A stretch of DNA of 64,000 nucleotides from Sthenelais limicola (Eukaryota; Annelida; Polychaeta; Phyllodocida; Sigalionidae), in the NCBI GenBank assembly GCA_942159475.1, contig OW804099.1, positions 11,543,146 through 11,607,145 on the forward strand, read 5' to 3'. This document shows positions 1-45,059 of the stretch, in pieces (within the stretch, counting starts at the first letter, position 1; each line of letters begins with the position of its first letter). The position numbers and the translations under genes were made by a program. Under the pieces are notes generated by a model, which was given only the letters and a program-made list of their open reading frames with translations, did no database searches and had not been told where the DNA came from.

Positions 1-361
1 GATTTTTATAATTATCAGCATCTACAACAAGATCATTTTTTACATAAATACATAAGCCCCCCCCCTTTTTTTTGGTTGCTCTGTCTTGTCAAAATAGGTT
101 GTAGTTTGGGATTGATATCGAGTTTGAGTGGGTACTGCTACTCAGCCATGTCTCAGAGAAGCAAAGGACATCTATATTTGATTGGTCAATTATAATTTCA
201 ATTTGACTGTGATGTTTTTGTAAACTTCTAATGTTCCAAGATACAAAAACCATGCCCTTATATTCTTGAAGGGCTTTAAAAGAATCGAGTTGTACATTTT
301 CCATGACTGGGTATTGTACAATTTCTTTTTGTTGTGTGGAGAAGCATGATATATGATACAT
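1..361 (-). pseudogene. LINE ORF2 N-terminus: AP-type endonuclease domain, cut by window edge
   Basis: The reading frame starting at 361 contains the signatures of a LINE apurinic-like endonuclease: SWNIRSL near residues 41-47, where the Asn is a metal/phosphate-site residue, and LCFSETWL near residues 66-73, where the Glu is the catalytic metal ligand. The frame hits a TGA at 89-91 and then continues in frame to the window edge with KKKGGGLCIYVKNDL, which is the next conserved endonuclease block. The TGA is therefore a point nonsense mutation in a decayed copy, not the natural end. The true start is uncertain, because ATG codons exist at residue 1 and again just before the domain. The enzyme would nick target DNA for target-primed reverse transcription. 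The lineage (CR1, jockey or relative) cannot be fixed without the reverse transcriptase. Confidence 0.8.
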
Positions 362-1768
362 GGGTACATAAAATATTTAGTAGATAAAATACATTGTAGT
401 AGTAGTACAGTAGCAGAGGACAGTATATATAGAACATACCAAATTTCTAAGGACAGTAGAAAGTAAAGTTTAAAACAAATAAACAAATATCAATCCACAA
501 AAATATCACATCCCCCACCAAGGCAGCCTAATACCAATGTTAAGTTGCTAGCTATCTTGGCGGGCAATGCACAGTGCATAGTGGTAAAATCATATCAGTA
601 TATCATAAGATATATTTGCTCTCATAATTACACATCATCCACCAGGGCCCTGTAGTACTAGAGTCAAGTTGCTACCTACCCTAGTGGACTCTGTGCATAC
701 ATGAGCAACAACATGTAAAAACAAATAAAGATGTGTACAAGATATGTATGTAGAGATGTAGCTGTACATACAGCCCATTCAAGTGACTGGGCTGTAGAGC
801 GCCCTATGCAATAATTTCCAAAATAGCCACTTTGTGCATTAAACTTTCGAAACACCACAAGTAAATATACTTAGGTCTATGTCTAAGTTGGTGCACAGGT
901 AAATGACATGTTTTGCATCATTTATATCAAATAATCTGATTGACTGGCAGTAAAATCAACTCAAGACAACCAGTGAAACAGACTATAGTCAGTGGTGAAA
1001 TGGACAATAAGCGCGGCGCTGATAGCACGTTATGCATTGGGCCTATGACTGTGTAGGCCTGTGGTAACTTGCATAAGTGGCAGCAGAGGCTGACGACCAA
1101 TAAAAGTGTTTTAAAACACAATTCCTTCTTAATATACAACAAAATAATGCTCACATTCACTATTTTCATAATAAGAGAGAACTAAGATATAGTTTTACAT
1201 TTATTTTGAGGGGCAAAACCTTGTGCTCTCCACCCAGGGATGGCGTGTCAATTTGAGCACTGCTTAGCAACAGACAACGTTGCATCATGATCTCAAATTT
1301 GATTGGGTGATGCGTCACAGCAGGCATGACTCGTGCGTAGCGGAACATAAACAACACTCATCGTGGACGGGACTTGTTGCAAAAGTTAGGGTTACAAAAT
1401 ACATATTGTCCCCCGCATTTAGTTAATAGGCCCGTGCATCAAATTAGTCCTATAAGATACTATATGTAAAGTTTGCCTGCTCAACTCTGTGCATATGTGT
1501 AGATCTCAGTGTTTGGTATTTATTTTGCATGGGCTGCTCTTCGACCCTATTCACGCGTACACAGTAGCCAGGTATAGGGTTGATGGTTCGGCTAGTAGAG
1601 ATGGTGTAAGCCAAGACATATAGTACTCTGAGCCAGTTTTTGGAAGGAGAGAGGGGCACATTTCTTTCCATCAAGGTTTTTTTGTAGCACGGGACTGATT
1701 CATATGATGTTGATTACTATATTTAACTGAGGTTTTAATTATTCAGTTAGTTATCTTTTTGTTTTTTC
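362..1768. other. Gap between ORF1 block and endonuclease; no clear gene
   Basis: No domain is recognisable on either strand. There is one imperfect direct repeat: 508-580 and 631-699 share a CCACCA...TTGCTA...GTGCATA pattern. A minus-strand frame at 1450-1674 (74 codons) is open but unrecognised. The segment could be a long inter-ORF spacer of the LINE or a later insertion. Confidence 0.4.
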
Positions 1769-2446
1769 CTAATGTCTGTATTTTTTTTCGACAGAGTTTG
1801 CAATGGCTGTTGCCCAGTAATCTCGTTGGTCTTCCTTTAAGTGGCACCCATCAGTATCCAATGTATCATAGTTGTGGGTGTAGGTGGAGTTAGATGGGTG
1901 ATATCTGTGTGTTTTCCTATTTGTCCACGGTGTAGCTGCATTTCTGTCTGTGTTAAACTCTTTTGTTCTTTTTCCTACCTCTTCAATCATTTGGTTTAGT
2001 AAATCCTGATGTGGGTGTTTCCTCAGGTGTTCTTTAGAGGTCTCGCCATTGTATAATTTTCGTCTATTATTATATATTTCGAGGCACATACCAGTTGGCA
2101 TTGCGAATGAGATGGTCATTGTTTGCTTGGTTTTTGATAATTTTGAGATATGGGTATATGCCTGTAATATTTCCTCCATGTATGAGTTCACAGATGATTC
2201 TACATCTGAGCAACGCAGATCAACTAGTCCATTGTACTTGTTCTTGTGGGTGATACTGCATATGCTTGCTATTATTATAACTTGGGTTGGTTTGAGTGAG
2301 ATGAGTTTACTTGTGGCCATTGATGCGATATCACAGATACTTGCTCCACTCTTTTGGAATATTTTGAAGGGAGCATTCATGTATTTGTTGAGACTACCTT
2401 CCATGTTCCTCGCCCTTGAATCCCCCAGAATCAAAATGTTCTCCAT
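1769..2446 (-). CDS. SGNH/GDSL-type esterase module of LINE ORF1
   Basis: This is a 225-residue frame. It opens with ILILGDSRARNM, the block I motif with catalytic Ser at residue 10. A block II-like Gly is at residue 34, and it closes with TDGCHLKE (residues 198-205), the block V Asp-x-x-His pair at Asp199 and His202. Block III, usually G-x-N-D, is not evident, so activity is uncertain. About 220 residues fits a compact SGNH fold. The frame is the same as that of the NADAR module upstream, and only two stop codons (TGA then TAA) lie in the roughly 33 codons between the two ORFs, so an intact relative may encode both in one protein. Esterase domains in ORF1 proteins of CR1-like LINEs are established; their substrate in retrotransposition is unknown. 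Met1 is the first ATG of the frame, but the domain could begin upstream of it. Confidence 0.75.
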   Translation of the reverse strand: MENILILGDSRARNMEGSLNKYMNAPFKIFQKSGASICDIASMATSKLISLKPTQVIIIASICSITHKNKYNGLVDLRCSDVESSVNSYMEEILQAYTHISKLSKTKQTMTISFAMPTGMCLEIYNNRRKLYNGETSKEHLRKHPHQDLLNQMIEEVGKRTKEFNTDRNAATPWTNRKTHRYHPSNSTYTHNYDTLDTDGCHLKEDQRDYWATAIANSVEKKYRH

Positions 2447-2545
2447 CGGTACGGCATATGGCGATAAACAGGGAGGATGGTAAAATATGGCAGAAATTCT
2501 ATGATGGAATGATGTGTTTTACTTATCTGATCTTCTTTCGTCTAA

Positions 2546-3022
2546 TCAGTGTGCTAATTCTAGTTTTATTTTGCCTAGAAGTTTTCCACAGGCGTTTTCC
2601 CCATTAAAATCAACTGATGTTATGGTTGTTTTTCTCCCGTTTGTGACCGTCCTTGGTAGGTTTACCCCAGTGGCCCATTTCCGGTTGGCTGTCATCTCGT
2701 AGAAATGAGTTTCCGTTAGGTTTTTCTGGTTTTCCTTTAGGTTGTTGTTCTGTTGGAATTTCATTCTTATAAGGTTCTCCAATAGTTGTGTTTGTCCATC
2801 AAACCAACTTTTTGAAGATTTTACATCCCTTGAGCTCATTTCCTTGACAACATATGGTGACGGTGTGTGTCGGAACACTTCGGCAATTTCCGGCTTATTG
2901 GCTTGTTTTGCGTTTTCAGCATGGTAGGCGTGCTCTACTGATTTATAATCAATTCCACCGAAATTGATTGTGGTTGGATACATATTAGACAGAAAAGCTC
3001 TTAAATCCAATGCCTTGCCCAT
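2546..3022 (-). CDS. NADAR (YbiA-like) domain inside a LINE ORF1 region
   Basis: This is a 158-residue frame. It contains AFLSNMYP (residues 9-16), YKSVEHAYHA (26-35), a downstream SWFDGQTQLLENLIRMKF helix, then KWATG and GENACGKLLGKIK near the C-terminus. These are the successive conserved blocks of the NADAR family (F-LSNF-P, sVEHayqa-K, WGtG, G-N-LGklLM), so the domain looks complete. Characterised NADAR enzymes handle ADP-ribose or NAD-derived nucleotides. Some remove ADP-ribose from guanine in DNA opposite DarT toxins, and plant and bacterial relatives act on riboflavin intermediates. The frame begins inside the end of the RRM-like ORF with a 38-bp overlap and is shifted +1 relative to it, which suggests either an indel in this copy or genuine frameshifting. 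It shares frame with the esterase module downstream. The position between ORF1p and esterase argues it is part of the element, but a captured host fragment cannot be excluded from one copy. Confidence 0.85.
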   Translation of the reverse strand: MGKALDLRAFLSNMYPTTINFGGIDYKSVEHAYHAENAKQANKPEIAEVFRHTPSPYVVKEMSSRDVKSSKSWFDGQTQLLENLIRMKFQQNNNLKENQKNLTETHFYEMTANRKWATGVNLPRTVTNGRKTTITSVDFNGENACGKLLGKIKLELAH

Positions 3023-3587
3023 TGTCTATCGACACATGTCGGGCATCCTCGGGGCGACATCCCTCCGGAAGTTTTTGCAAGTCATGAACGGAGAATGACT
3101 TGTGTAAGATCATGATATGGCTACCTACATGTTTGGCGTTGTAGCCGTTTAGAATCAGCAGTTTGGTGCAGTCTCTGAGAAGTTTAAAATGGTAGTGTGG
3201 AACTTTCAGGCCTTGTTCATTTATCACAATGTTTTTGCATCGGACGTCATTCCTTTTCACTCGATCTATTTGTTCGACGAATGATGTTAGCATGGCGCTG
3301 TTTGGTGAGCGCACCATGACTGGTCTGATTTTCTCAGCTGATTCTTGACCGATACGGTAAATTTGATCAAAATTCGCCATAGATACGTCTGCTTTTACTA
3401 ATTTGAACAAGGATGTGATGTCCTCTTCAATAATCTCTTCCCCCAGCTCCGGGAAATCGTCAATAACAAGAATAGTACGACCCTTCTTCGAGAACCGAGA
3501 GGGACCATCCTTTGTGATCGGCTTTTGTTGCTGTGGCTTCGGTAGAGGTCGGAGATGTCGCTCCCCTGTCAAGCCCCGAGCCGCCAT
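2985..3587 (-). CDS. LINE ORF1p RRM-like nucleic-acid-binding domain
   Basis: This 200-residue frame starts at an ATG, but the frame continues in phase upstream through a proline-rich linker to the TGA that ends the coiled-coil ORF (3654-3656). The two are therefore probably one ORF1 protein of about 540 residues split by a single TGA. The core carries an ILVIDDFPELGEE strand and then YRIGQ, RPVMVRSPN and FVEQIDRVK, the pattern seen in RRM-type ORF1 proteins (R-IG-K...RP-vVkf...vl-...). Such proteins coat the element RNA. The N-terminal 35 residues are basic and proline/glutamine-rich. The frame ends 38 bp inside the NADAR frame. No catalytic function is expected. Confidence 0.7.
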   Translation of the reverse strand: MAARGLTGERHLRPLPKPQQQKPITKDGPSRFSKKGRTILVIDDFPELGEEIIEEDITSLFKLVKADVSMANFDQIYRIGQESAEKIRPVMVRSPNSAMLTSFVEQIDRVKRNDVRCKNIVINEQGLKVPHYHFKLLRDCTKLLILNGYNAKHVGSHIMILHKSFSVHDLQKLPEGCRPEDARHVSIDNGQGIGFKSFSV

Positions 3588-3653
3588 CGCATAGGTCCTA
3601 GGATTATATGGTGATGGAGAGGGACCATTTCTCAGGTAGGGTGGTGGTATTTC

Positions 3654-4619
3654 TCACTGCATGTTGTTGACCATCTGTGTTAAGTTTTCAACTGTTGATC
3701 TCAACCGTAGTAATTCGGCCTGGTTTTCAGATATCTTATTTCTATCATCCACAGTTACTTTGTTATCCGAAATCATTATGTCGGCCATGTTGCTTTTGAT
3801 TTCGGCCTGGACAAGCAATGAGATATTCTGTTGGTTATTTTGCAGTTTTAATTTTTCCACTTCCTGGGAGTTTGATTGACACTTGGCATCAATTTTTTCG
3901 ATCTGTTTGTTATTTGATTCTAGATGTGCGTTAATTATTAACTGAAACTGGGACCCAGCTTCCCTTATGGCAGATGAAACAACTGGGATGATCACATCGT
4001 ACATTTGCCTTTGAAAAAAACTAAAGCTTTGGGAGCAGAGTACATAGTTCTGATTCGCCACATCCTGACTATTATCATTATCATTGCAACTGGTTTGATT
4101 TGATTTTATTACCCTCTTGTCCAGACCTGTTTCCTGGCAGTTTTCAGAGGGCACTGACTTTAAACCATTCGTCAACATGGCACCCCCCTCCACACGATTT
4201 GTCGTTGTATGAGCAGATTCATAATAAACCTCTGAGACTTCTAAGACCTCTGCCTGTAATGTGGTCTCTAATTCAGGTAGGTTGGTACTTGTTTTATTTT
4301 CTGTAGAGAGTTGTGATCTGGTAAAGGTGATTGTGTGTGAGTCATTCATTAAACCAGGTTTTTCCACAGGTGGTTCTCGGTCCCTATTTGTATTTTGTTC
4401 CCTGTCTTTTTCACCATTTTTCATGATATCTGTTGTTTCATCGCTATCATAATTAATGGCCACTCCAGATATGGGGGTGGATGTGAGTGGTATATCCTTA
4501 GTTGGTGATAAAAAGTCTCTGAACGATTGATCCTCTGTCCAACTGTGGTCTTGATTTAGTTTGGGTTGAGCGATAATAGGTGAGCTAGCCAGGTTCAATG
4601 TGGCGGTAGATCCCGCCAT
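3654..4619 (-). CDS. LINE ORF1 N-terminal half with coiled coil
   Basis: This is a 321-residue frame starting at ATG 4617-4619 within an AAAAAATGG context. Residues 1 to about 200 are polar, Ser/Thr/Asn-rich and probably disordered. From about 205 to the end there are regular heptad-like hydrophobics with many Gln, Asn, Glu and Lys, consistent with a coiled coil that would trimerise or multimerise ORF1p. The closing TGA at 3654-3656 is followed in frame by about 22 open codons that reach the RRM-like segment, so the stop may be a nonsense mutation in this copy. Coiled coil followed by RRM is the standard LINE ORF1 layout. No zinc knuckle is visible. Confidence 0.65.
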   Translation of the reverse strand: MAGSTATLNLASSPIIAQPKLNQDHSWTEDQSFRDFLSPTKDIPLTSTPISGVAINYDSDETTDIMKNGEKDREQNTNRDREPPVEKPGLMNDSHTITFTRSQLSTENKTSTNLPELETTLQAEVLEVSEVYYESAHTTTNRVEGGAMLTNGLKSVPSENCQETGLDKRVIKSNQTSCNDNDNSQDVANQNYVLCSQSFSFFQRQMYDVIIPVVSSAIREAGSQFQLIINAHLESNNKQIEKIDAKCQSNSQEVEKLKLQNNQQNISLLVQAEIKSNMADIMISDNKVTVDDRNKISENQAELLRLRSTVENLTQMVNNMQ

Positions 4620-4813
4620 TTTTTTCGTTGTTTTAAGCCAAGTCTAATAGTCAAATAACTTCTGTTCAATAGTCCGTTTTAACAGGGCTATTACGTCCTG
4701 CCCTTCTATAATGATTCATGAATGATTTAAAGTCCTCTGTTTGTGATATTTCACTATTGATTCATGCTTCTCCACATGTAATAATGGGACTAGGCGTACA
4801 TGACGTTCACCAT

Positions 4814-4948
4814 GGGCGTAGTAACATAGGGAGGGGGGTAGGAAAGAGTAGCATAGGGAGGGGGGTAGGAAAGAGTAGCATAGGGAGAGGGGTAGGAAAG
4901 AGTAGCATAGGGAGGGGGAAGGAGAGCAGTATAGGGAGGGGGTAGAAT
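4814..4948 (+). repeat. 27-bp minisatellite (GGGGTAGGAAAGAGTAGCATA)n
   Basis: There are about five imperfect tandem copies of a purine-rich 27-bp unit. The same unit type, with GGAGAGAGCAGCATAGGG variants, recurs at 62050-62385, beyond the stalk exon of the right-hand gene. The shared minisatellite supports the idea that the two loci are paralogous introns. Confidence 0.85.
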
Positions 4949-7376: not shown

Positions 7377-8160
7377 TCAAGATGAAGAGAAGGCAGATAG
7401 AGATGCAGCAATTCGTTTCTCAATTCTATATTTCAATGGAGGGCAGACGTAGTCCAGGGCACAAAGAGATTTCCAATCTCCTGCAACCTTGATATCTTCC
7501 AATGGCATCCCCATCAAATGGAGATACGTAGCCGCACCACGACGCAACAAATGCATTCCAACATTCTTGGAAATGCATGCTGCTTTGACCCACCTCTTTA
7601 GCATAGACAAGGCTGTAGAATACGGCACAGGAACACCATTCCTAGCAATGATATAATCAGCAGATGATCCAGAAAAACGATGCCACAAGATGTTGACCCA
7701 ATTTACCAAGCACAGGTCACCTCCACATCTAGCCACAGGGATACGGACAGTCCTCTCACCATATTGAATCGTCTTGGAAGAAGTAACCATTATTTCGAGG
7801 CTCCAATCATGAAATTCCACGTCCTTTCTACAAAGCAAATGTGTGTCTGGCGGAACTGAAAAAATATGGCATTTTCCCAGCATTTATCCCTCGATATTTT
7901 CCCAGCTAAAGGCAAAAACCACTCCCACCCATACCAAAAGTTTGTTGTCATCACTAAGATTCACTTGTTGAAACATGGCCGACAGGTCTTCAGGTAATAA
8001 AGGATCTTTAGCTGAAACTTTAGCACCCAATTGTCTTTTTGCACCAGCCAAAACAATGCCCACAGCAAAGTCCTCACGTAGATGGACACCTTCATGCATT
8101 TTTGATAAATAATTAATGGCCGAAATCATATTATTAATTGATGAATAAGCCATAGTGTCT
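7377..8160 (-). pseudogene. DIRS/Ngaro-like tyrosine recombinase, broken copy
   Basis: Two in-frame pieces meet at a TAA near 7884. The upstream piece (from about 8150) carries the SAM-like core-binding helices (YSSINNMISAINYLSKMHEG). The downstream piece carries the catalytic half: SSKTIQYGERTVRIP, then MHLLRRGAATYLH with the HxxR box, GDWKSLCALDY with the Trp/His-position residue, and a nearby Tyr. These are the landmarks of YR-retrotransposon recombinases, which join a circular cDNA to the genome without endonuclease. The first catalytic Arg region is damaged where GCTGGGAAAAT occurs twice, 22 bp apart, around the stop. The N-terminal end merges into a 17-bp minisatellite, so the element is truncated there, and no RNase H or RT is seen beside it. 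Confidence 0.75.
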
Positions 8161-18154: not shown

Positions 18155-21100
18155 GGGACATGCTTATCTAGCACTGACCACTCCACCCAGCCATACTTAT
18201 TAAGTCTCCCTGCTCTAATGTAATCAGTGGGTAGGGGGGGGGACATGGTTATCTAGCACTGACCACTCCACCCAGCCATACTAATTAAGTCTCAATGCTC
18301 TAATGTAATCAGTGGGTGGGGGGGGGGGGACATGCTTATCTAGCACTGACCACTCCACCCAGCCATACTAATTAAGTCTCCCTGCTCTAATGTAATCAGT
18401 GGGTAGAGGGAGGGACATGCTTATCTAGTACTGACCACTCCACCCAGCCATACTAATTAAGTCTCCCTGCTCTAATGTAATCAGTGGGTAGGGGGGGGAC
18501 ATGCTTATCTAGCACTGACCACTCCACCCAGCCATACTAATTAAGTCTCACTGCTCTAATGTAATCAATGGGTAGGAGGACATGGTTATCTAGTACTGAC
18601 CACTCCACCCAGCCATACTAATTAAGTCTCCCTGCTCTAATGTAATCAATGGGTAGGGGGGGGGACATGCTTATCTAGCACTGACCACTCCACCCAGCCA
18701 TACTAATTAAGTCTCACTGCTCTAATGTAATCAGTGGGTAGGGGGGGGGACATGCTTATCTAGCACTGACCACTCCACCCAGCCATACTAATTAAGTCTC
18801 CCTGCTCTAATGTAATCAGTGGGTAGGAGGACATGCTTATCTAGCACTGACCACTCCACCCAGCCATACTAATTAAGTCTCACTGCTCTAATGTAATCAG
18901 TGGGTAGGGGGGGACATGCTTATCTAGCACTGACCACTCCACCCAGCCATACTAATTAAGTCTCCCTGCTCTAATGTAATCAGTGGGTAGGGGGACATGC
19001 TTATCTAGCACTGACCACTCCACCCAGCCATACTAATTAAGTCTCCCTGCTCTAATGTAATCAGTGGGTAGGGGGAGGGACATGCTTATCTAGCACTGAC
19101 CACTCCACCCAGCCATACTAATTAAGTCTCCCTGCTCTAATGTAATCAGTGGGTAGGGGGGGGACATGCTTATCTAGCACTGACCACTCCACCCAGCCAT
19201 ACTAATTAAGTCTCACTGCTCTAATGTAATCAATGGGTAGGAGGACATGGTTATCTAGTACTGACCACTCCACCCAGCCATACTAATTAAGTCTCCCTGC
19301 TCTAATGTAATCAATGGGTAGGGGGGGGGGACATGCTTATCTAGCACTGACCACTCCACCCAGCCATACTAATTAAGTCTCACTGCTCTAATGTAATCAG
19401 TGGGTAGGGGGGGGGACATGCTTATCTAGCACTGACCACTCCACCCAGCCATACTAATTAAGTCTCCCTGCTCTAATGTAATCAGTGGGTAGGAGGACAT
19501 GCTTATCTAGCACTGACCACTCCACCCAGCCATACTAATTAAGTCTCACTGCTCTAATGTAATCAGTGGGTAGGGGGGGACATGCTTATCTAGCACTGAC
19601 CACTCCACCCAGCCATACTAATTAAGTCTCCCTGCTCTAATGTAATCAGTGGGTAGGGGGACATGCTTATCTAGCACTGACCACTCCACCCAGCCATACT
19701 AATTAAGTCTCCCTGCTCTAATGTAATCAGTGGGTAGGGGGAGGGACATGCTTATCTAGCACTGACCACTCCACCCAGCCATACTAATTAAGTCTCCCTG
19801 CTCTAATGTAATCAGTGGGTAGGGGGACATGCTTATCTAGCACTGACCACTCCACCCAGCCATACTAATTAAGTCTCATTGCTCTAATGTAATCAGTGGG
19901 TAGGGGGACATGCTTATCTAGCACTGACCACTCCACCCAGCCATACTAATTATGTCTCCCTGCTCTAATGTAATCAGTGGGTAGGGAGGGGAGACATGCT
20001 TATCTAGCACTGACCACTCCACCCAGCCATACTAATTAAGTCTCACTGCTCTAATGTAATCAGTGGGTAGGGGGACATGGTTATCTAGCACTGACCACTC
20101 CACCCAGCCATACTAATTATGTCTCACTGCTCTAATGTAATCAGTGGGTAGGAGGACATGCTTATCTAGCACTGACCACTCCACCCAGCCATACTAATTA
20201 TGTCTCCCTGCTCTAATGTAATCAGTGGGTGGGGGGGGGGGGGGGGGGGACATGCTTATCTAGCACTGACCACTCCACCCAGCCATACTAATTAAGTCTC
20301 CCTGCTCTAATGTAATCAGTGGGTAGGGGGACATGCTTATCTAGCACTGACCACTCCACCCAGCCATACTAATTAAGTCTCCCTGCTCTAATGTAATCAG
20401 TGGGTAGGGGGAGGGGACATGCTTATCTAGCACTGACCACTCCACCCAGCCATACTAATTAAGTCTCCCTGCTCTAATGTAATCAGTGGGTAGGGGGACA
20501 TGCTTATCTAGCACTGACCACTCCACCCAGCCATACTAATTAAGTCTCCCTGCTCTAATGTAATCAGTGGGTAGGGGGGGGGGACATGCTTATCTAGCAC
20601 TGACCACTCCACCCAGCCATACTAATTAAGTCTCACTGCTCTAATGTAATCAGTGGGGGGGGGGGGGACATGCTTATCTAGCACTGACCACTCCACCCAG
20701 CCATACTAATTAAGTCTCACTGCTCTAATGTAATCAGTGGGTAGGGAGAGGGACATGCTTATCTAGCACTGACCACTCCACCCAGCCATACTAATTAAGT
20801 CTCACTGCTCTAATGTAATCAGTGGGTGGGGGGGGGGACATGCTTATCTAGCACTGACCACTCCACCCATCCATACTAATTATGTCTCCCTGCTCTAATG
20901 TAATCAGTGGGTAGGGGGACATGCTTATCTAGCACTGACCACTCCACCCAGCCATACTAATTAAGTCTCATTGCTCTAATGTAATCAGTGGGTGGGTAGG
21001 GGGACATGCTTATCTAGCACTGACCACTCCACCCAGCCATACTAATTAAGTCTCCCTGCTCTAATGTAATCAGTGGGTAGGGGGGGGGACATGCTTATCT

Positions 21101-24100
21101 AGCACTGACCACTCCACCCAGCCATACTAATTAAGTCTCATTGCTCTAATGTAATCAGTGGGTAGGGGGGGGGGGGACATGCTTATCTAGCACTGACCAC
21201 TCCACCCAGCCATACTAATTAAGTCTCCCTGCTCTAATGTAATCAGTGGGTAGGAGGACATGCTTATCTAGCACTGACCACTCCACCCAGCCATACTAAT
21301 TAAGTCTCACTGCTCTAATGTAATCAGTGGGTAGGGGGGGGACATGCTTATCTAGCACTGACCACTCCACCCAGCCATACTAATTAAGTCTCACTGCTCT
21401 AATGTAATCAGTGGGTAGGGGGGGGGACATGCTTATCTAGCACTGACCACTCCACCCAGCCATACTAATTAAGTCTCCCTGCTCTAATGTAATCAGTGGG
21501 TAGGGGGACATGCTTATCTAGCACTGACCACTCCACCCAGCCATACTAATTAAGTCTCCCTGCTCTAATGTAATCAGTGGGTAGGGGGAGGGGACATGCT
21601 TATCTAGCACTGACCACTCCACCCAGCCATACTAATTAAGTCTCCCTGCTCTAATGTAATCAGTGGGTAGGGGGACATGCTTATCTAGCACTGACCACTC
21701 CACCCAGCCATACTCATTAAGTCTCACTGCTCTAATGTAATCAGTGGGTAGGAGGACATGGTTATCTAGTACTGACCACTCCACCCAGCCATACTAATTA
21801 AGTCTCCCTGCTCTAATGTAATCAGTGGGTAGGGGGGGACATGCTTATCTAGCACTGACCACTCCACCCAGCCATACTAATTAAGTCTCCCTGCTCTAAT
21901 GTAATCAATGGGTAGGGGGGGGACATGCTTATCTAGCACTGACCACTCCACCCAGCCATACTAATTAAGTCTCACTGCTCTAATGTAATCAGTGGGTAGG
22001 AGGACATGCTTATCTACCACTGACCACTCCACCCAGCCATACTAATTAAGTCTCCCTGCTCTAATGTAATCAGTGGGTAGGGGGGAGGGACATGCTTATC
22101 TAGCACTGACCACTCCACCCAGCCATACTAATTAAGTCTCCCTGCTCTAATGTAATCAGTGGGTAGGGAGAGGGACATGCTTATCTAGCACTGACCACTC
22201 CACCCATCCATACTAATTAAGTCTCACTGCTCTAATGTAATCAGTGGGTAGGGGGACATGCATATCTAGCACTGACCACTCCACCCAGCCATACTAATTA
22301 AGTCTCCCTGCTCTAATGTAATCAGTGGGTAGGGGGACATGCTTATCTAGCACTGACCACTCCACCCAGCCATACTAATTAAGTCTCACTGCTCTAATGT
22401 AATCAGTGGGGGGTGGAGGGACATGCTTATCTAGCACTGACCACTCCACCCAGCCATACTAATTAAGTCTCACTGCTCTAATGTAATCAGTGGGTAGGAG
22501 GACATGGTTATCTAGCACTGACCACTCCACCCAGCCATACTAATTAAGTCTCACTGCTCTAATGTAATCAGTGGGTAGGGGGGGTGGACATGCTTATCTA
22601 GCACTGACCATTCCACCCAGCCATACTAATTAAGTCTCATTGCTCTAATGTAATCAGTGGGTAGGGAGAGGGACATGCTTATCTAGCACTGACCACTCCA
22701 CCCAGCCATACTAATTAAGTCTCACTGCTCTAATGTAATCAGTGGGTAGGGGGGGGGGACATGCTTATCTAGCACTGACCACTCCACCCAGCCATACTAA
22801 TTAAGTCTCACTGCTCTAATGTAATCAGTGGGTAGGGGGGGGGACATGCTTATCTAGCACTGACCACTCCACCCAGCCATACTAATTAAGTCTCCCTGCT
22901 CTAATGTAATCAGTGGGTAGGGGGAGGGACATGCTTATCTAGCACTGACCACTCCACCCAGCCATACTAATTAAGTCTCCCTGCTCTAATGTAATCAGTG
23001 GGTAGGGGGGGGGACATGCTTATCTAGCACTGACCACTCCACCCAGCCATACTAATTAAGTCTCACTGCTCTAATGTAATCAGTGGGTAGGGGGGGGGGG
23101 GACATGCTTATCTAGCACTGACCACTCCACCCAGCCATACTAATTAAGTCTCACTGCTCTAATGTAATCAGTGGGTGGGGGGGGGGGGGACATGCTTATC
23201 TAGCACTGACCACTCCACCCAGCCATACTAATTAAGTCTCCCTGCTCTAATGTAATCAGTGGGTGGGGGGGGGGACATGCTTATCTAGCACTGACCACTC
23301 CACCCAGCCATACTAATTAAGTCTCCCTGCTCTAATGTAATCAGTGGGTAGGGGGACATGCTTATCTAGCACTGACCACTCCACCCAGCCATACTAATTA
23401 AGTCTCCCTGCTCTAATGTAATCAGTGGGTAGGGGGACATGCATATCTAGCACTGACCACTCCACCCAGCCATACTAATTAAGTCTCACTGCTCTAATGT
23501 AATCAGTGGGTAGGGGGGGGGGGACATGCTTATCTAGCACTGACCACTCCACCCAGCCATACTAATTAAGTCTCCCTGCTCTAATGTAATCAGTGGGTAG
23601 GGGGGGTGGAGGGACATGCTTATCTAGCACTGACCACTCCACCCAGCCATACTAATTAAGTCTCTCTGCTCTAATGTAATCAGTGGGTAGGGGGGGGACA
23701 TGTTTATCTAGCACTGACCACTCCACCCAGCCATACTAATTAAGTCTCACTGCTCTAATGTAATCAGTGGGTAGGAGGGGACATGCTTATCTAGCACTGA
23801 CCACTCCACCCAGCCATACTAATTAAGTCTCTCTGCTCTAATGTAATCAGTGGGTAGGGGGACATGCTTATCTAGCACTGACCACTCCACCCAGCCATAC
23901 TAATTAAGTCTCCCTGCTCTAATGTAATCAGTGGGTAGGGGGGGTGGACATGCTTATCTAGCACTGACCACTCCACCCAGCCATACTAATTAAGTCTCAC
24001 TGCTCTAATGTAATCAGTGGGTAGGGGGGGGGACATGCTTATCTAGCACTGACCACTCCACCCAGCCATACTAATTAAGTCTCCCTGCTCTAATGTAATC

Positions 24101-27100
24101 AGTGGGTAGGGGGGACATGGTTATCTAGCACTGACCACTCCACCCAGCCATACTAATTAAGTCTCACTGCTCTAATGTAATCAGTGGGTAGGAGGACATG
24201 CTTATCTACCACTGACCACTCCACCCATCCATACTAATTAGGTCTCCCTGCTCTAATGTAATCAGTGGGTAGGGGGGAGGGACATGCTTATCTAGCACTG
24301 ACCACTCCACCCAGCCATACTAATTAAGTCTCACTGCTCTAATGTAATCAGTGGGTAGGGGGGGGACATGCTTATCTAGCACTGACCACTCCACCCAGCC
24401 ATACTAATTAAGTCTCCCTGCTCTAATGTAATCAGTGGGTGGGGGGGGGGGGGGACATGCTTATCTAGCACTGACCACTCCACCCAGCCATACTAATTAA
24501 GTCTCTCTGCTCTAATGTAATCAGTGGGTAGGGGGGGGACATGTTTATCTAGCACTGACCACTCCACCCAGCCATACTAATTAAGTCTCACTGCTCTAAT
24601 GTAATCAGTGGGTAGGAGGGGACATGCTTATCTAGCACTGACCACTCCACCCAGCCATACTAATTAAGTCTCTCTGCTCTAATGTAATCAGTGGGTAGGG
24701 GGACATGCTTATCTAGCACTGACCACTCCACCCAGCCATACTAATTAAGTCTCACTGCTCTAATGTAATCAGTGGGTAGGGGGGGGACATGGTTATCTAG
24801 CACTGACCACTCCACCCAGCCATACTAATTAAGTCTCACTGCTCTAATGTAATCAGTGGGTAGGAGGACATGCTTATCTACCACTGACCACTCCACCCAT
24901 CCATACTAATTAGGTCTCCCTGCTCTAATGTAATCAGTGGGTAGGGGGGAGGGACATGCTTATCTAGCACTGACCACTCCACCCAGCCATACTAATTAAG
25001 TCTCACTGCTCTAATGTAATCAGTGGGTAGGGGGGGGACATGCTTATCTAGCACTGACCACTCCACCCAGCCATACTAATTAAGTCTCCCTGCTCTAATG
25101 TAATCAGTGGGTGGGGGGGGGGGGGGACATGCTTATCTAGCACTGACCACTCCACCCAGCCATACTAATTAAGTCTCACTGCTCTAATGTAATCAGTAGG
25201 TAGGGGGGGGGACATGCTTATCTAGCACCGACCACTCCACCCAGCCATACTAATTAAGTCTCACTGCTCTAATGTAATCAGTGGGTAGGGGGGGACATGC
25301 TTATCTAGCACTGACCACTCCACCCAGCCATACTAATTAAGTCTCACTGCTCTAATGTAATCAGTGGGTAGGGGAGGGACATGCTTATCTAGCACTGACC
25401 ACTCCACCCAGCCATACTAATTATGTCTCCCTGCTCTAATGTAATCAGTGGGTAGGGGGACATGCTTATCTAGCACTGACCACTCCACCCAGCCATACTA
25501 ATTAAGTCTCACTGCTCTAATGTAATCAGTGGGTGGGAGGACATGCTTATCTAGCACTGACCACTCCACCCAGCCATACTAATTAAGTCTCACTGCTCTA
25601 ATGTAATCAGTGGGTAGGAGGACATGCTTATCTAGCACTGACCACTCCACCCAGCCATACTAATTAAGTCTCACTGCTCTAATGTAATCAGTGGGTAGGA
25701 GGACATGCTTATCTAGCACTGACCACTCCACCCAGCCATACTAATTAGGTCTCCCTGCTCTAATGTAATCAGTGGGTAGGGGGGGGGGACATGGTTATCT
25801 AGCACTGACCACTCCACCCAGCCATACTTATTAAGTCTCCCTGCTCTAATGTAATCAGTGGGTAGGGGGGGGGGGGACATGGTTATCTAGCACTGACCAC
25901 TCCACCCAGCCATACTAATTAAGTCTCAATGCTCTAATGTAATCAGTGGGTAGGAGGACATGCTTATCTAGCACTGACCACTCCACCCAGCCATACTAAT
26001 TAAGTCTCACTGCTCTAATGTAATCAGTGGGTAGGGGGGGACATGCTTATCTAGCACTGACCACTCCACCCAGCCATACTAATTAAGTCTCACTGCTCTA
26101 ATGTAATCAGTGGGTAGGGGAGGGACATGCTTATCTAGCACTGACCACTCCACCCAGCCATACTAATTAAGTCTCACTGCTCTAATGTAATCAGTGGGTA
26201 GGGGGGGGACATGCTTATCTAGCACTGACCACTCCACCCAGCCATACTAATTGAGTCTCACTGCTCGAATGTAATCAGTGGGTAGGGGGGGACATGCTTA
26301 TCTAGCACTGACCATTCCACCCAGCCATACTAATTAAGTCTCACTGCTCGAATGTAATCAGTGGGTAGGGGGGGACATGCTTATCTAGCACTGACCACTC
26401 CACCCAGCCATACTAATTAAGTCTCACTGCTCTAATGTAATCAGTGGGGGGGGGGGCATGCTTATCTAGCACTGACCACTCCACCCAGCCATACTAATTA
26501 AGTCTCACTGCTCTAATGTAATCAGTGGGTAGGAGGACATGCTTATCTAGCACTGACCACTCCACCCAGCCATACTAATTAAGTCTCACTGCTCTAATGT
26601 AATCAGTGGGTAGGGGGACATGCTTATCTAGCACTGACCACTCCACCCAGCCATACTAATTAAGTCTCACTGCTCTAATGTAATCAGTGGGTAGGGGAGG
26701 ACATGCTTATCTAGCACTGACCACTCCACCCAGCCATACTAATTAAGTCTCACTGCTCTAATGTAATCAGTGGGTAGGAGGACATGCTTATCTAGCACTG
26801 ACCACTCCACCCAGCCATACTAATTAAGTCTCACTGCTCTAATGTAATCAGTGGGTAGGGGGACATGCTTATCTAGCACTGACCACTCCACCCAGCCATA
26901 CTAATTAAGTCTCATTGCTCTAATGTAATCAGTGGGTAGGGGGGGGGGGGGGGACATGCTTATCTAGCACTGACCACTCCACCCAGCCATACTAATTAAG
27001 TCTCCCTGCTCTAATGTAATCAGTGGGTAGGGGGGGGGGACATGCTTATCTAGCACTGACCACTCCACCCAGCCATACTAATTAAGTCTCACTGCTCTAA

Positions 27101-28140
27101 TGTAATCAGTGGGTAGGGGGGGGGGACATGCTTATCTAGCACTGACCACTCCACCCAGCCATACTAATTAAGTCTCCCTGCTCTAATGTAATCAGTGGGT
27201 AGGGGGACATGCTTATCTAGCACTGACCACTCCACCCAGCCATACTAATTAAGTCTCCCTGCTCTAATGTAATCAGTGGATAGGGGGAGGGGGACATGCT
27301 TATCTAGCACTGACCACTCCACCCAGCCATACTAATTAAGTCTCACTGCTCTAATGTAATCAGTGGGTAGGGGGGGGACATGTTTATCTAGCACTGACCA
27401 CTCCACCCAGCCATACTAATTAAGTCTCACTGCTCTAATGTAATCAGTGGGTAGGGGGGGGGGACATGCTTATCTAGCACTGACCACTCCACCCAGCCAT
27501 ACTAATTGAGTCTCACTGCTCTAATGTAATCAGTGGGGGGGGGACATGCTTATCTAGCACTGACCACTCCACCCAGCCATACTAATTAAGTCTCACTGCT
27601 CTAATGTAATCAGTGGGTAGGGGGACATGCATATCTAGCACTGACCACTCCACCCAGCCATACTAATTAAGTCTCACTGCTCTAATGTAATCAGTGGGTA
27701 GGGGGACATGCTTATCTAGCACTGACCACTCCACCCAGCCATACTAATTAAGTCTCACTGCTCTAATGTAATCAGTGGGTAGGGGGGGGGGACATGCTTA
27801 TCTAGCACTGACCACTCCACCCAGCCATACTAATTAAGTCTCCCTGCTCTAATGTAATCAGTGGGTAGGGGGACATGCTTATCTAGCACTGACCACTCCA
27901 CCCAGCCATACTAATTAAGTCTCACTGCTCTAATGTAATCAGTGGGGGGGGGGGGCATGCTTATCTAGCACTGACCACTCCACCCAGCCATACTAATTAA
28001 GTCTCACTGCTCTAATGTAATCAGTGGGTAGGGGGGGGGGACATGCTTATCTAGCACTGACCACTCCACCCAGCCATACTAATTATGTCTCACTGCTCTA
28101 ATGTAATCAGTGGGTAGGAGGACATGCTTATCTAGCACTG
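18155..28140 (+). repeat. Satellite array, about 85-bp unit, about 10 kb
   Basis: The unit runs GACATGCTTATCTAGCACTG, ACCACTCCACCCAGCCATAC, TAATTAAGTCTC(A/C/T)CTGC, TCTAATGTAATCAGTGGGTA, then a G run. Length divided by unit size gives about 115-120 copies. Units are nearly identical except the A/C/T marker, CAGTGG versus CAATGG, TTAAG versus TTATG, and the G run, which varies from about 4 to 19 (longest at 20231-20249). Higher-order structure is visible: an eight-unit block 18481-19140 is repeated at 19141-19800, and a block from about 23695 recurs from about 24535, missing two units. No open frame survives. The array starts gradually at about 18155 and stops mid-unit at 28140, where a short TATAGCAGTACATG triplication leads into the next element. 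Function unknown. Confidence 0.97.
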
Positions 28141-28709: not shown

Positions 28710-29701
28710 TCACAGTTCGTTGATAACTGAGGACACGACCGACCGAATTTTGCACTTCCTATCATATGGAGTGATCAGGTAAGAAAGTACTGCCATTGAC
28801 TTCCAATCCTCAATACACTTAATGTCCTCCAGGGGAACTCCTGAGTCATGGAGGACGGCAGCGCCCGCCCTCCGAAGAGAATGTAAACCCACAGTGGACG
28901 GATCCAGTCCAATGGAGGTAGCCAAGCGTTTTAGGAATTTCAACACATCATCATACAGGACCGGGCTAGGGCCTGTAGGGGATAGCTTGAAGAACAGGGG
29001 CCCATTAGGGGAACTGGGAAACCGAGCGAAGTGTGAATGAAGCATGGAACAGGCACAAAACGCCGGCTTATTGACGTAGAAGACAGGGATAGAGTGGACC
29101 CTGTCCCTGTACTTGATCGTCTTAGAGGAGCGGATGTGAAGAACCATTCCAGTAGAGGTGAACTCAACATCTGATCTCTGTAGAACATGGCCCAACTCCA
29201 AGGGAGCAGTTGGAACAATGTTAGACTTCCGCAATAAGGAGCGAAACGAGAGTACCACCACCGCCCAGAAGGTAACATTATTGAGATCCTTGAAATCCAG
29301 AGACAGGTACATCTTATGTAAGTCAACCGTGGACAGGCATGCCTTCTGAGAGACCTCCTTCCCACGAATACGAGCTAAGCCCATGAGAGTGAGCTTCACA
29401 AGATAACTGTCTCTAAATCCAGACTCGTGCCCAAAGAACCGGTGAAGGGCACAAATCACTGAGACGTAATTATTACAGGTCGAATAGGCTAGTGATCTGC
29501 CAAGATAGACCAAGAACCTTGCCACGGTGTGGTCTGATGCTGGAAGGGGTTGTAAGTCATTATCACCGCCCACTTCCCCCACTGACTGTTCCTGGTCTTG
29601 ATGGTGTTGGAGGACCAAGCTGAGGTGATAGTAGCACTAACTTCCTTATCCAGTACTGGTAAGTCCACCTGGAGTGAACGCCAAACTGCAACACAAGTCA
29701 A
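28710..29701 (-). pseudogene. DIRS/Ngaro-like tyrosine recombinase with one frameshift
   Basis: The catalytic part is a 302-residue open frame (28710-29618). It has SFRSLLRKSN (first catalytic Arg region), SSKTIKYRDRVHSIP (beta-hairpin Lys region), GLHSLRRAGAA (HxxR box), IEDWKSMAVLSY (Trp at the second His position) and a following Tyr. The N-terminal core-binding start lies in another frame (29701 to about 29570), with ITSAWSSNTIKTRNSQWGKW, the usual element-type opening. A single frameshift near 29560-29590 therefore splits an enzyme of about 330 residues. The enzyme would integrate circular cDNA. Its start overlaps the end of the RNase H segment, as is common in these elements. The catalytic frame is otherwise clean, suggesting a fairly young insertion. 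Confidence 0.85.
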
Positions 29702-30112
29702 AGGGAGCTATATCAGACACATCACCAGAAAAATGGATTCTAGACAACAAATCAGTTAACACATTATCACATCCTTTGACATGTCTAGCTGTAAGATGAA
29801 TGTTAGACTTAGCGCACAACCAAAATATCTCCCTGAGGAGAGACATGCTGATCCTGTTCTTGCTAACACCCTTGTTAATGGCCGCCCAGACCTGGGTATT
29901 GTCAGTATATACCCCACATGAAAATTACTCCAGACAGATCCGAAGCGAATCAGGGCTAGTTTGACAGGCCATAACTCTCACACGTTGATATTGGTAGCAG
30001 CCAAAGGTGGAAGATCGGTCACATTGACCCAGTGAGAGTGATGCGGATCAAGCAAGTCATGATTACGAGGAAGGGTGTTTTCACAGAAGAACCCAGCCTG
30101 CCAATCGGTCGC
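29646..30112 (-). pseudogene. RNase H domain fragment of YR retroelement 2
   Basis: Translating upstream of the recombinase gives the RNase H block VYTDNTQVWAAINKG with the catalytic Asp, then the helix around SLLREIFWLCAKSNIHLTAR and HVKGCDNVLTDLLSR with the last acidic residue. Further upstream an open frame (ATDWQAGFFCENTLPR ... SHWVNVTDLPP) is the N-terminal strand region. A TGA replaces a Trp before ELWPVKLALIRF near 29975, and a frame change lies near 29925, so the fragment is dead. It begins at the junction with the Crypton-like gene. Confidence 0.75.
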
Positions 30113-31048
30113 CGAATTGTAGCATTATAGTACTACCCACACAAGTTATTAGTGTGTAATTCTGTTCTGACTGTGTTGCATGATAACTACCAACTATCTT
30201 AACATTAGGTGTTTGATTAAAATAACTCAGGAGCAGGTGGTGCCTAGGCGTGATACAATTGAACCTGATGCAATGATTGGTATGCTCCCTGGAGAGCTTA
30301 CATTTGGCAGATATCCTCTTCATGAAGGTTGTGACTGGGTCGGGTCCGAGTGGTGAATTAACGTACCAGCAAGGGTCTTCAGGCTGTGCGTTGTGACGTG
30401 GGCATTGCCAGAGACGCTTGCAAAGGGGGTTGAGCTTCCCCAAGTATTTTTGGAGGGAGGCAAGCACGCAGTTGGCCCCACCAGTGGCGTAAAGGCATTG
30501 GTCGTGGCCCTGTCTGTTAGTGGACGGCTGGTGGTTTTTTTCTAATGGTATATGGTCGAGAGTAGTGTAAGTAGCGTTGCTCTCGTCAGTCTTGATAACA
30601 ATTTCTGACTTCATCATTTTCTCGAGCCCCTCTTGTCCCCTCCTGCCGAAGTGAAGAACCACTTCGAAAAGCACCTTCAGTTGCAGGCCTTGTGGTGTGT
30701 TGTTTGTGAGGACTCCTGACGAGTACATCAGCGAGAGATTGCTCTGCTTGATTGGAGGATGTCCCCTATCAATGTCTTTCCCGTCCTCCGACAAGACACG
30801 CAATTTTCCTTGGAGAACCTTGTTGGCGCATATAAACGCCTGATCATGACTAATGTTTATGTTTCTTAAGAATGGAGGATCATTGAGTCGGCAGTTAATA
30901 GCAGACTTGATTGAATTCAGTGATGAGCAGCTGTATGGTTTGCCTGACGCTGAGCACAGTTCGCCATAAAACTGTTGTAGAAGATTAGCCAATTCTGGTA
31001 GTGGTAGGTCTTCGAAGTTGGGGCTGTGTCCATTTGTGGTGAGCCATT
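30081..31048 (-). CDS. Crypton/KIAA1958-like tyrosine recombinase domain, main exon
   Basis: An acceptor (TTTATTTCAG on the minus strand, exon starting 31048) opens a frame of about 320 residues. It follows the DUF3504/Crypton pattern: EWLTTNG..., LPLPELANLLQQFYGELCS, YSCSSLNSIKSAINCRL, VLFEVVLHFGRRGQEGL (the Arg of the first catalytic box), KEN-like KNHQPSTNRQ, GPDPVTTFMKRIS and TNHCIRFNCIT (second box with the family's TNHsiR). The expected GH box is degenerate (IVGSYHATQSEQNY), though a final Tyr is present, so strand exchange is doubtful. The last dozen codons run into YR retroelement 2, so the natural C-terminus is probably replaced. Related domains occur both in Crypton transposons and in domesticated host genes (KIAA1958, ZMYM, QRICH1). 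Spliced structure is compatible with either. Confidence 0.75.
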
Positions 31049-31310
31049 CTGAAATAAAAACCAATGCTTTATGTCAAGCTGAAAGCTCCATGTAAACAGG
31101 TATTGCTAGTCTACAAACGATTGAGGACTCAGTAATTATTATTGATACATGACGCCACTGTGTTATATAAGAGTACTATGTCGGATGTGAGATTGAAGTC
31201 CCAAAGTTAATTAAATGTTTACACAGGGTAAGTATCGCCGCATCTGTAGAGGAGACAATTGATTAATAGATTTGTTGTATAAAATAAGCTGTATTGCTTG
31301 ATTGACTTAC

Positions 31311-37839: not shown

Positions 37840-40136
37840 GGTTTTTTTTTTTTGACAATATGTTTATTCAGGAGGTTTGTACAATAAAGCAACCAAAACA
37901 ATTTTGCTTATAAATATAGCGATTTTCCTCATGCCCTGATCATCAGGACTTTGTCTCTTGTCCATATGGTGGGTGAGACGTTCTTTTAAATAATATACTA
38001 TTGTCATCAGCATAGTTAGATTCAATTTTTGATACATTGGTCTTTTGCAATCTTTTTACCTTATTTTATACTACTATGCGATATATACATTCAATGGAAG
38101 TGGATCGATACAAGGATCGATAATGAAATTTATATGATGAGGAATGGAGTGATATGATGAAATAATAACAGGCTATTATTTGTATAGCTATAAATGGTGG
38201 GTGAGTGAGTGGCACATATGCATAGTTTGTTTTTAGGGGTGAGTAGGGTAAGCATTTCGATTTTGTAACAGTTACTGTGAAATAGTATAATCATTGTACG
38301 TCATGGCAATACATTTTCAGACATTTTTCTTATAATAGTGTGCTTGAGCGCAGTGCTAAACTCTTTACAAACATCTCTATTTCTCAATGATGGTTCTAAA
38401 GCATTCCAATCTCTGGCACATTGGTATGTCAGAGATCTCCTATCTTTCTCAGTTCGCGGTATAAAAGTAGTCAGAGTAGGAGCGGTGTTTTGTCTCGTAT
38501 TTCTAGTATCTAAATTATTTCTCTCACTATATGCTGCTCCATGAGCTAATCTCATATTGTTAAATAATATCCTATCTTTGATTAACATCGTTTTTGTTTC
38601 TATGTGCATTTCAATTATAGGCGTCCTTATATCTGCACCTAATGCACTACGAATTACTCTATTTTGGAGTTTTTGAAGTTTTTCTAATTCACTTTTATTT
38701 AGACAGCTTAGTACAGATAGACTATAATCAAATAATGATAATATCTTAGACTTACAGATAATGACTGCAGTCCTGGCATCCAGATTCTTTCTTATTTTGT
38801 TAAACGAATAGAGCTTGTAATTTATTTGCTTCACTACTGAGTTTAGCTGACCTATCATCGTTAGATGTTCGTCCAGTTTAATGCCTAAATATTCATATGA
38901 GACTACTGATTCTAGTGGCGTATTATCTATTTTGACTACTACTTGCTTGCCATGTGTTTTATGGCGCGTGTTAAACACCAGCAATTTTGTTTTTGTTTTG
39001 TTGAGAGAAAGCCTGCAGCTCAAGCACCAATTAAAAAATATTTTAAGATCAGCAGAGAGAGAATCTTCACAGTTTTTCAGGTTTGGTGCAGAATAATAAA
39101 TAACAGTGTCATCTGCATATTGTATGAATTTAGATGCAAAATTGAGGTCCTTTATATCGTTTACATAAATTAAGAATAGCAAGGGTCCGAGTACAGAACC
39201 CTGCGGAACACCAATCGGGTTTATTTCTGCCGAAGAAGCACACTCTCCAATTTTTACGCACTGAGTCCTGTTTTTCAAATATGATTTGAACCATGTTATA
39301 CCTAATTCATTTATACCAATATCATACATTTTTTTTAACAATATATCATGGTCAACACAATCGAAGGCTTTGCTGAAATCCACAAAGCATGCCAGCGTAT
39401 AATCTTTTTTGTGCATGGAATTGTTTATATCCGATACAAGCTTATATATGGCCTCATTTGTGCTGTGTCCTTTTTAAAATCCTAGTTGATGATCGCTTAA
39501 TAATTTATTTTGATTCAAGTATTCTTTGAGGTGTAATGCTATAATTTTTTCCATGATTTTCCCAGCAATGTGCGTGAGAGAAATCGGACGCGTGTCACCA
39601 GGTGTTTTAGCTAGTGGCTTCTTCGGCAGAGGTTTAACAATACTATGTTTCCACATTTGGGGAAAGATACCAGTCTCAATTGAGAGTCTGTATACATGAA
39701 TAAGTTTGTCAATCAATATAATAAATGCATCCTTATAAATCTTAGTAGAAATGTCACTACAACCTGAACTTTTAGAGACTGCTGTGTCTCTGATGATTTG
39801 CAACACCGCATCCCTGTCAACAATCGGTTGGGTATATGCATGTTCAATTTCATGATTTCTTCTCATTAGGGGCGAACTGGGAAGTCTATTTGCCGTTTGT
39901 TGGCCTATATTACAATAATACTTGTTTAATTCAGTCGCAGCTTCCATGCCTTTCAATGTATGATTGTCTTCGTTAATTATGGTAGAGATATCACTGGTTT
40001 GTTTATTTTCGATTTCATCAATAGTACGCCAAAATTTCTTAGAGTCATTTTTATTTTCTGCGAGTAAATTCCGATAATATTGTGCTTTAGCCTGTTTCAC
40101 TGCCCTATTACATAAATTCGTTTCCGTCAAGTTGCT
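37840..40136 (-). mobile_element. 5'-truncated jockey/CR1-like LINE
   Basis: The poly-T at 37841-37852 is the poly(A) tail of a minus-strand copy, preceded by a reverse-strand AATAAAC signal. The coding part covers reverse transcriptase to the C-terminus and the 3' untranslated region is about 450 bp. Endonuclease and ORF1 are missing. The insertion is nested inside the 36628-40847 element and is therefore younger than it. Confidence 0.85.
38301..40136 (-). pseudogene. LINE reverse transcriptase, single in-frame stop
   Basis: The two large frames (39474-40130 and 38301-39416) are in the same phase and separated by one TAA, about 19 codons before the second ATG. The first holds the linker and RT fingers (KPLPKK...DTRPISL, LSDHQLGF). 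After the stop come GHSTNEAIYKLV, FVDFSKAFDCVDH (block A with the catalytic Asp), GVPQGSVLGPLLFLIYVNDI (block B), FIQYADDTVIYYS (the YADD active site), and then the thumb with YEYLGIKLD. The C-terminal portion has the usual RDWNALEPSLRN. Total length is about 610 residues. All catalytic residues are intact, so only the one stop and the 5' truncation inactivate it. Confidence 0.92.
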
Positions 40137-40559
40137 CGAATTGATTCAAACTAAAGACCCCCCTGTAATCTAGAGACATGCAGCTTTAATAATATGTAAA
40201 GTTTGTGTATGAATCAACCCAGGAGACATGTGCAGAAATTCATTAAAAGTCACCCACCCACATAATTGAAATAATTCCATATGACTCGTTTTCATGTGAC
40301 ACATCACATAAAAATAATCTGTTTGAAGGGATAACATTTGTTTCACATTATTTAGAAAATGCTTTTAATTCTTTCTCTCCTGCCTATATAAACCTTGATT
40401 TTAAGATGTAGAATTTTTTTTATATGCTTTTATGATGCACTGATGTATGCAGCTGAGAAAATTTTTGGAAAAAAAAATAAAAATATTCGTCTGTTTTTAC
40501 ATGGATCCCGATGAATATTCCTAAGGAGAAAAGGAGATTCTTTGTAGAACTGCTTTGAG
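40137..40559. other. Interior of the inverted-repeat element, right side
   Basis: AT-rich, with no ORF or motif. It resumes the host element after the LINE insertion and leads into the right AGAACCC array. Confidence 0.5.
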
Positions 40560-44945: not shown

Positions 44946-45059
44946 AAATAAAAAATAGACCGTGGGTACAGTCACGGTCTGTACTCCCATAATTGCACGC
45001 AAATTCAACCAAAATCTGATCCAAAATGGACTAAAGATGGCTACCCATCCTTGCCGCAC

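What the first reader, a model, noticed from the sequence alone, without database searches (positions are those of the whole stretch)
1769..4619. A LINE ORF1 region that carries a complete NADAR domain between RRM and SGNH esterase
The minus-strand order coiled coil, RRM-like ORF1p, NADAR, SGNH esterase is seen directly. Esterase domains in CR1-like ORF1 proteins are established, and NADAR enzymes are known to remove ADP-ribose from guanine (against DarT) or act on related nucleotides. I know of no described LINE with a NADAR module. Inference: the element may use it to reverse host ADP-ribosylation of its RNA, cDNA or target DNA, or to exploit an NAD-derived metabolite. This is my best candidate for an undescribed system.
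Basis: partly seen in the sequence, partly recalled or inferred. Interest (0 to 1): 0.88.

Follow-up and report, generated by a model that had tools for sequence, protein, structure and literature searches.

The report
LINE retrotransposons carrying a NADAR domain
A large, recently active group of animal LINE retrotransposons carries, in its presumed RNA-packaging protein, an enzyme-like domain of the kind that removes ADP-ribose from DNA and RNA bases, which hints that the host may use that chemical mark against jumping genes.

The parts
3657..4619 (-). ORF1 N-terminal part of the broken copy: low-complexity region and putative coiled coil, ended by an in-frame stop
   Evidence: ORF listing; this locus (L001) is 94% identical to the open ORF1 of L032 over this part; coiled coil not confirmed
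2985..3653 (-). ORF1 RRM-like and following domain; runs out of frame just inside the start of NADAR
2546..3022 (-). NADAR domain (PF08719), frameshifted relative to the RRM piece; the K50-equivalent lysine is Asn in this copy
   Evidence: Pfam E 9e-13; residue table
1769..2446 (-). SGNH-fold hydrolase-like ORF, separate from ORF1 in relatives with open frames
759..1594 (.). 836-bp insertion in the spacer between the SGNH ORF and ORF2, flanked by a 9-bp direct repeat; not part of the element
   Evidence: Absent from relative L032
1..304 (-). Start of ORF2 (endonuclease); a stop lies at 91-89, and the rest, outside the window (L036), is in several frames
   Evidence: PF03372 E 9e-4, below its cut-off; L036; open ORF2 in relatives
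1595..4814 (-). Element body 5' of the insertion; the 5' end of the element lies at about 4814
   Evidence: 96.1% identity to L032 begins at this point in both copies

Best explanation
Shown: this is a dead copy of a LINE family whose ORF1 protein joins an L1-like RRM region to a NADAR domain. A separate SGNH-fold ORF and an endonuclease/RT ORF2 follow. Relatives with open frames are numerous, some are nearly identical to each other, and the NADAR pocket is kept by purifying selection.

Inferred: ORF1p coats the element's RNA, and its tethered NADAR hydrolyses ADP-ribose off guanine bases of that RNA, of the new cDNA or of nicked target DNA. This undoes a host modification that would block translation or reverse transcription. 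The SGNH ORF would act in another step, perhaps at membranes.
For: Family and mobility: 300 scored NADAR loci, no overlap between the two lists; 87 of 150 and 86 of 150 lie in open frames of 600 codons or more with no stop in the match. L033 shares its 5' end with one other copy, and its 3' end with a (TTA)n tail with three others, at 99.7% over about 790 nt, on four different contigs. Order RRM-NADAR-SGNH: of 30 loci fetched by NADAR, 30 have the RRM region and 27 the SGNH ORF. 110 of 150 listed SGNH hits have a listed NADAR within 2 kb upstream; of 20 of the other 40 read, 14 carry NADAR remnants, 6 none, and 0 have RRM without NADAR.

Mechanism: a Phytophthora NADAR removes ADP-ribose from guanine in DNA (PMC11543638, passages). 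[quoted passage not shown]
Against: No enzyme activity, RNA binding or host transferase was shown. The D130-equivalent, which contacts the pyrophosphate through water in the Phytophthora enzyme, varies (D 18, N 14, S 12, other 2 of 46 rows). The equivalent of E43 was not essential in vitro as an Ala mutant in E. coli C7 NADAR, and R79 and R93 were not counted here, so conservation does not prove activity. Natural substrates outside DarT operons are unknown. The loci are not independent: 16 of the 30 fetched are at least 93% identical in NADAR to one of four reference elements. Six SGNH copies read upstream hold no NADAR, and the 10 RT copies read hold none in the same orientation; I read these as 5' truncations.
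Confidence: 0.4

Rival explanations
1. RNA-processing or recognition role: the NADAR pocket binds a nucleotide feature of the RNA (cap, spliced leader, modified end) and helps ORF1p pick or process its RNA, as NADAR domains are thought to do in the nematode trans-splicing protein SNA-3.
For: Mutating NADAR residues inactivates SNA-3, which contacts the cap-binding complex (PMC9303266, abstract and passages). D130 is not kept in part of the family, which fits binding without full catalysis.
Against: The two glutamates around the distal ribose are kept, which pure binding would not obviously require. NADARs tested did not act on ADP-ribosylated RNA phosphate ends (PMC11833690). Whether this host trans-splices was not tested.
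Confidence: 0.22
2. Counter-signalling: the domain destroys soluble NAD-derived alarm molecules (ADP-ribose derivatives) made by the host when elements are active.
For: Proposed for viral NADARs, mainly of phages (PMC9503650, passages).
Against: The same paper favours macromolecular targets for NADARs of eukaryotic RNA viruses. Tethering to a presumed RNA-binding ORF1p suits a nucleic-acid target better than a diffusible one (inference).
Confidence: 0.15
3. Structural or captured passenger domain with no catalytic role.
For: D130 replaced in many group-a copies.
Against: dN/dS 0.08-0.28 in group a and near-invariant pocket residues in both groups.
Confidence: 0.1
4. Artefact: chance frame, host gene or contamination next to a LINE.
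For: The window copy alone is broken and could mislead.
Against: 300 scored loci on contigs C1 to C9; shared element ends; open ORFs.
Confidence: 0.01

Closest known systems
Tx1 LINEs of Crassostrea gigas with YbiA-family NADAR in ORF1 (PMC12477816, passages read)
   Same: NADAR inside the ORF1 of a LINE in an invertebrate animal
   Different: Reported in one sentence as divergent Repbase hits. Tx1 belongs to the L1 group (recalled); the RT here reads GVPQGTILGPVLF where human L1 reads GTRQGCPLSPLLF (alignment). The passages read describe no separate SGNH ORF, copy numbers or selection
NADAR-bearing Gypsy elements of Ectocarpus (same paper, passages read)
   Same: NADAR captured by a retrotransposon
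   Different: LTR element; [quoted passage not shown]
Type II (CC-RRM-CTD) and type IV (esterase) ORF1s of L1, CR1 and L2 elements (PMC4120745, PMC3905857, passages read)
   Same: L1-like RRM in ORF1; SGNH-fold esterase in the element
   Different: NADAR added; esterase is a separate ORF, with Cys where I align the oxyanion Asn; both modules in one element
P0001, an unnamed 628-aa ENA protein
   Same: NADAR (E 3.9e-20) followed by an SGNH-like region (my reading; Pfam only E 0.098, below cut-off)
   Different: NADAR and SGNH-like region in one protein; similarity to group b in NADAR only, 26-30% identity
NADARs of DarTG1, YbiA and RNA viruses (PMC11543638, PMC9503650, passages read)
   Same: Fold and ADP-ribose pocket
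   Different: Toxin-antitoxin, metabolic or viral setting; no LINE

Membership tests
NADAR superfamily (PF08719) | Profile score above Pfam's cut-off | tested here: met
   Window copy 49.2 against 35.1 bits; 16 of 16 A3 members match at E<=1; 150 of 150 scored genome loci over the cut-off
NADAR superfamily (PF08719) | YbiA-like fold | tested here: met
NADAR superfamily, YbiA subfamily | Glu at the E125 position (Asp in BC4488, His in phages; PMC11543638) | tested here: met
   Glu in 45 of 46 rows, His in 1
NADAR superfamily, YbiA subfamily | Asp at the D130 position, which contacts ADP-ribose through water | tested here: inconclusive
   D 18, N 14, S 12, K 1, G 1 of 46 rows; Asp in most group-b rows, variable in group a; spacing differs by one residue from YbiA and 8bau
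NADAR superfamily | ADP-ribosyl-guanine hydrolase activity | not testable with these tools
   Needs biochemistry
Non-LTR retrotransposon (LINE) | Endonuclease and reverse transcriptase in ORF2 | tested here: met
   PF00078, PF14529, PF03372 over cut-off in ORF2 of L033, L034, L035; PF00078 and PF14529 in L080
Non-LTR retrotransposon (LINE) | Common 3' end with a simple-repeat tail, and 5' truncations | tested here: met
   Four copies end at the same point with (TTA)n; homology of other copies stops at different 5' points
Non-LTR retrotransposon (LINE) | Target-site duplications | tested here: inconclusive
   None clear by eye at the two copies whose ends were printed
Tx1 clade (NADAR LINEs of oyster) | RT of L1/Tx1 type | tested here: inconclusive
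   RT motif differs from human L1 and looks CR1/Jockey-like (recalled); no clade tree without reference RTs
CR1/Jockey group of LINEs | RT clade by phylogeny | not tested
   No reference RT set at hand
Type II (L1-like) ORF1 | L1-type RRM with following domain | tested here: inconclusive
Type II (L1-like) ORF1 | Coiled coil | tested here: inconclusive
   3.5-residue periodicity not above shuffles for the window copy (145 of 200 reach it; best of six proteins 13 of 200); weak coiled-coil profile hits in group b
SGNH hydrolase / type IV ORF1 esterase | Ser-Asp-His triad | tested here: met
   Ser 12 of 12; Asp and His 11 of the 11 rows that reach them
SGNH hydrolase / type IV ORF1 esterase | Oxyanion Asn of block III | tested here: not met
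   Cys in 12 of 12 at the position I align by eye; so SGNH-fold, not filed as a canonical member
SGNH hydrolase / type IV ORF1 esterase | Esterase lies in ORF1 | tested here: not met
   Separate open frame wherever both were open

The most novel reading that the evidence does not exclude
A whole radiation of animal LINEs, spanning at least two old RT lineages, carries its own nucleic-acid de-ADP-ribosylase in the RNA-packaging protein. That would mean the host restricts retrotransposons by ADP-ribosylating guanines in their RNA or cDNA, an undescribed layer of genome defence, with the paired SGNH ORF as a second counter-defence or assembly enzyme.
Probability: 0.3. Interest if true: 0.9.

Novelty: new variant of a known kind. 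Interest (0 to 1): 0.72.

Why it matters
In one published panel NADARs were the only hydrolase family that removed ADP-ribose from guanosine in RNA (PMC11833690), and their role in animals is open. A mobile element that keeps such a pocket across many copies and two distant groups gives a direct, testable link between nucleic-acid ADP-ribosylation and control of retrotransposons. It also adds an enzyme-like module to LINE ORF1, and NADAR appears beside an SGNH-like region again in a different protein, P0001.

Tried and rejected
Single NADAR frame against the protein database: 6 candidates, none at E<=1e-4. Group-a ORF1 alignment: 7298 candidates, none at E<=1e-5. Group-b core: 6612 candidates, one protein at E<=1e-4. 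Viral contig scans gave one 17-residue match (L031, not pursued) and otherwise nothing. No PDB sequence hit for the SGNH ORF, single or as alignment; the fold gave it.

NADAR-less relatives: for 10 RT hits without a NADAR or SGNH hit in my lists (picked by eye from 46 scored) I read 3.3 kb upstream. None has RRM or NADAR in the same orientation and 2 have SGNH remnants. Where copies could be compared, homology stops at different points, so I read them as 5' truncations, not as a NADAR-free variant; this is not proved for each. The six SGNH copies with no NADAR also lack RRM. Twenty unmatched SGNH copies were not read.

Rejected: chance frame, host gene, contamination. The 3.5-periodicity test for a coiled coil did not beat shuffles. 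Target-site duplications unclear. The host taxon could not be named. In one search I left out L001, L036 (same locus as the window) and L031, and open frames under 120 aa.

Papers: searches. PMC12477816 is the only paper tying NADAR to retrotransposons that I saw, but searches listed only 20 of 104 and 20 of 137 papers, and the library lacks most subscription papers. Repbase was not searched.

Bias: lists of 150 are the scored part of 4197 and 5561 first-look candidates, so counts are lower bounds. dS above 1 is poorly estimated by the simple correction used, and the pairs are not independent.

Full report
1. What is there. On the minus strand of 1-4814 lies a broken LINE. Its ORF1 begins at 4619, meets an in-frame stop at 3656-3654, continues as an RRM-like piece to 2985, and changes frame into a NADAR domain at 3022-2546. 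An SGNH-like ORF follows (2446-1769), and the start of an endonuclease/RT ORF2 lies at 304-1 (the endonuclease fragment alone is below Pfam's cut-off). An 836-bp insertion with a 9-bp flanking repeat sits at 759-1594. The copy is 96% identical to L032, whose ORF1 lies in an open frame of 715 codons. In the window copy and its neighbour L002 the equivalent of the lysine that coordinates phosphate in known NADARs is Asn. So this copy is dead.

2. The family. The NADAR frame found 150 scored loci of 4197 candidates in the host genome, all at E<=5e-32; 87 of 150 lie in open frames of 600 codons or more with no stop in the match. The Pfam NADAR model found another 150 scored of 5561 candidates, all over the cut-off, 86 of them in such frames, with no overlap with the first list. 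Both lists hold hits on contigs C1 to C9. I call the first list group a and most of the second group b. Group a: ORF1 frames of 701-786 aa in the four elements read whole, NADAR at the C-terminus. Group b: ORF1 frames of 574-827 aa, NADAR followed by a low-complexity tail. Of ten stretches fetched from the second list, nine show LINE-like ORF1 frames (L071 broken in two), six of these with an SGNH-like ORF recognised by eye downstream, and one, L079, is a stand-alone NADAR ORF. ORF2s of three group-a elements are 53-54% identical to each other and 30-32% to the single group-b ORF2 at hand (L080), about as distant as other LINE fragments of the window (25-40%).

3. Architecture. L033, L034 and L035 show ORF1, then a separate SGNH-like ORF of 230-249 aa, a spacer of about 0.6-1.6 kb, and ORF2 of 975-1003 aa. 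L080 has the same order, with overlapping ORF1 and SGNH frames and an ORF2 of 981 aa. ORF2 carries RVT_1 and the LINE endonuclease. L033 and a copy on another contig share the 5' end; L033 and three others share the 3' end and a (TTA)n tail at 99.7% identity over about 790 nt. The whole unit, NADAR included, therefore moves, and has done so recently.

4. Is NADAR constant? Of 30 loci fetched by NADAR, 30 have the RRM region and 27 the SGNH ORF at E<=1e-6. From the other side, 110 of 150 listed SGNH hits have a listed NADAR within 2 kb upstream. I read 1.3 kb upstream of 20 of the other 40: 14 hold NADAR remnants, 6 hold none, and none of the 20 has RRM without NADAR. Ten RT hits without a listed NADAR have no RRM or NADAR in the same orientation in 3.3 kb and look 5'-truncated.

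7. How it works. Shown: the anatomy, mobility and constraint. Inferred: ORF1p brings a de-ADP-ribosylating pocket to the element's RNA and cDNA. [quoted passage not shown] RNA viruses of invertebrates carry NADARs too, for which host macromolecular ADP-ribosylation is the proposed target (PMC9503650). The strongest rival is an RNA-end or splicing role as in SNA-3 (PMC9303266).

8. Known or new. Of the papers that my searches listed (searches list only 20 each of 104 and 137), one ties NADAR to retrotransposons: PMC12477816, which notes NADAR-like ORF1s in C. gigas Tx1 LINEs and describes NADAR in Ectocarpus Gypsy elements (passages). The ORF1 types named in the passages I read of PMC4120745 do not include NADAR. 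One unnamed ENA protein, P0001, joins NADAR and an SGNH-like region. So the kind is in print in brief; this three-ORF, two-group, large and constrained family is a new variant.

Noticed in passing
L079 (G000:C1:94854300-94856700): Stand-alone 162-aa NADAR ORF (Pfam E 3.2e-31) next to an ORF that reminds me of a viral or Polinton-type DNA polymerase (recalled; no Pfam hit). Two further hits with the same frame length on C1.
   Followed up: partly
L063 minus strand 407-1570: A more diverged NADAR ORF1 (34% identity to group a; Pfam E 6e-17) followed by an SGNH-like ORF (by eye).
   Followed up: partly
window 62068-64000 and G000:C6:11609852-11613328: A second, 98-99% identical copy of the same broken LINE about 65.66 kb away in the same orientation, suggesting a segmental duplication or an assembly duplication; related AGGGAGGGGG minisatellites lie at 4820-4942 and 62064-62376.
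   Followed up: partly
window 18155-28140: About 119 copies of an 81-bp tandem repeat, 10 kb long.
   Followed up: no
window 38301-40145 and 43527-45030, minus strand: Fragments of other LINE reverse transcriptases, 25-40% identical to the NADAR LINE ORF2s.
   Followed up: no
window 7377-7883, 28710-29636, 30081-31073, minus strand: ORFs that look like tyrosine recombinases of mobile elements (my reading, no search done).
   Followed up: no
window 759-1594: 836-bp insertion of unknown kind with a 9-bp flanking repeat inside the LINE spacer.
   Followed up: partly
A4, SGNH ORFs: Invariant Cys where I align the oxyanion Asn of canonical SGNH enzymes, plus a strongly kept TPWT..R..HRYHP...THNY motif of unknown role.
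   Followed up: no
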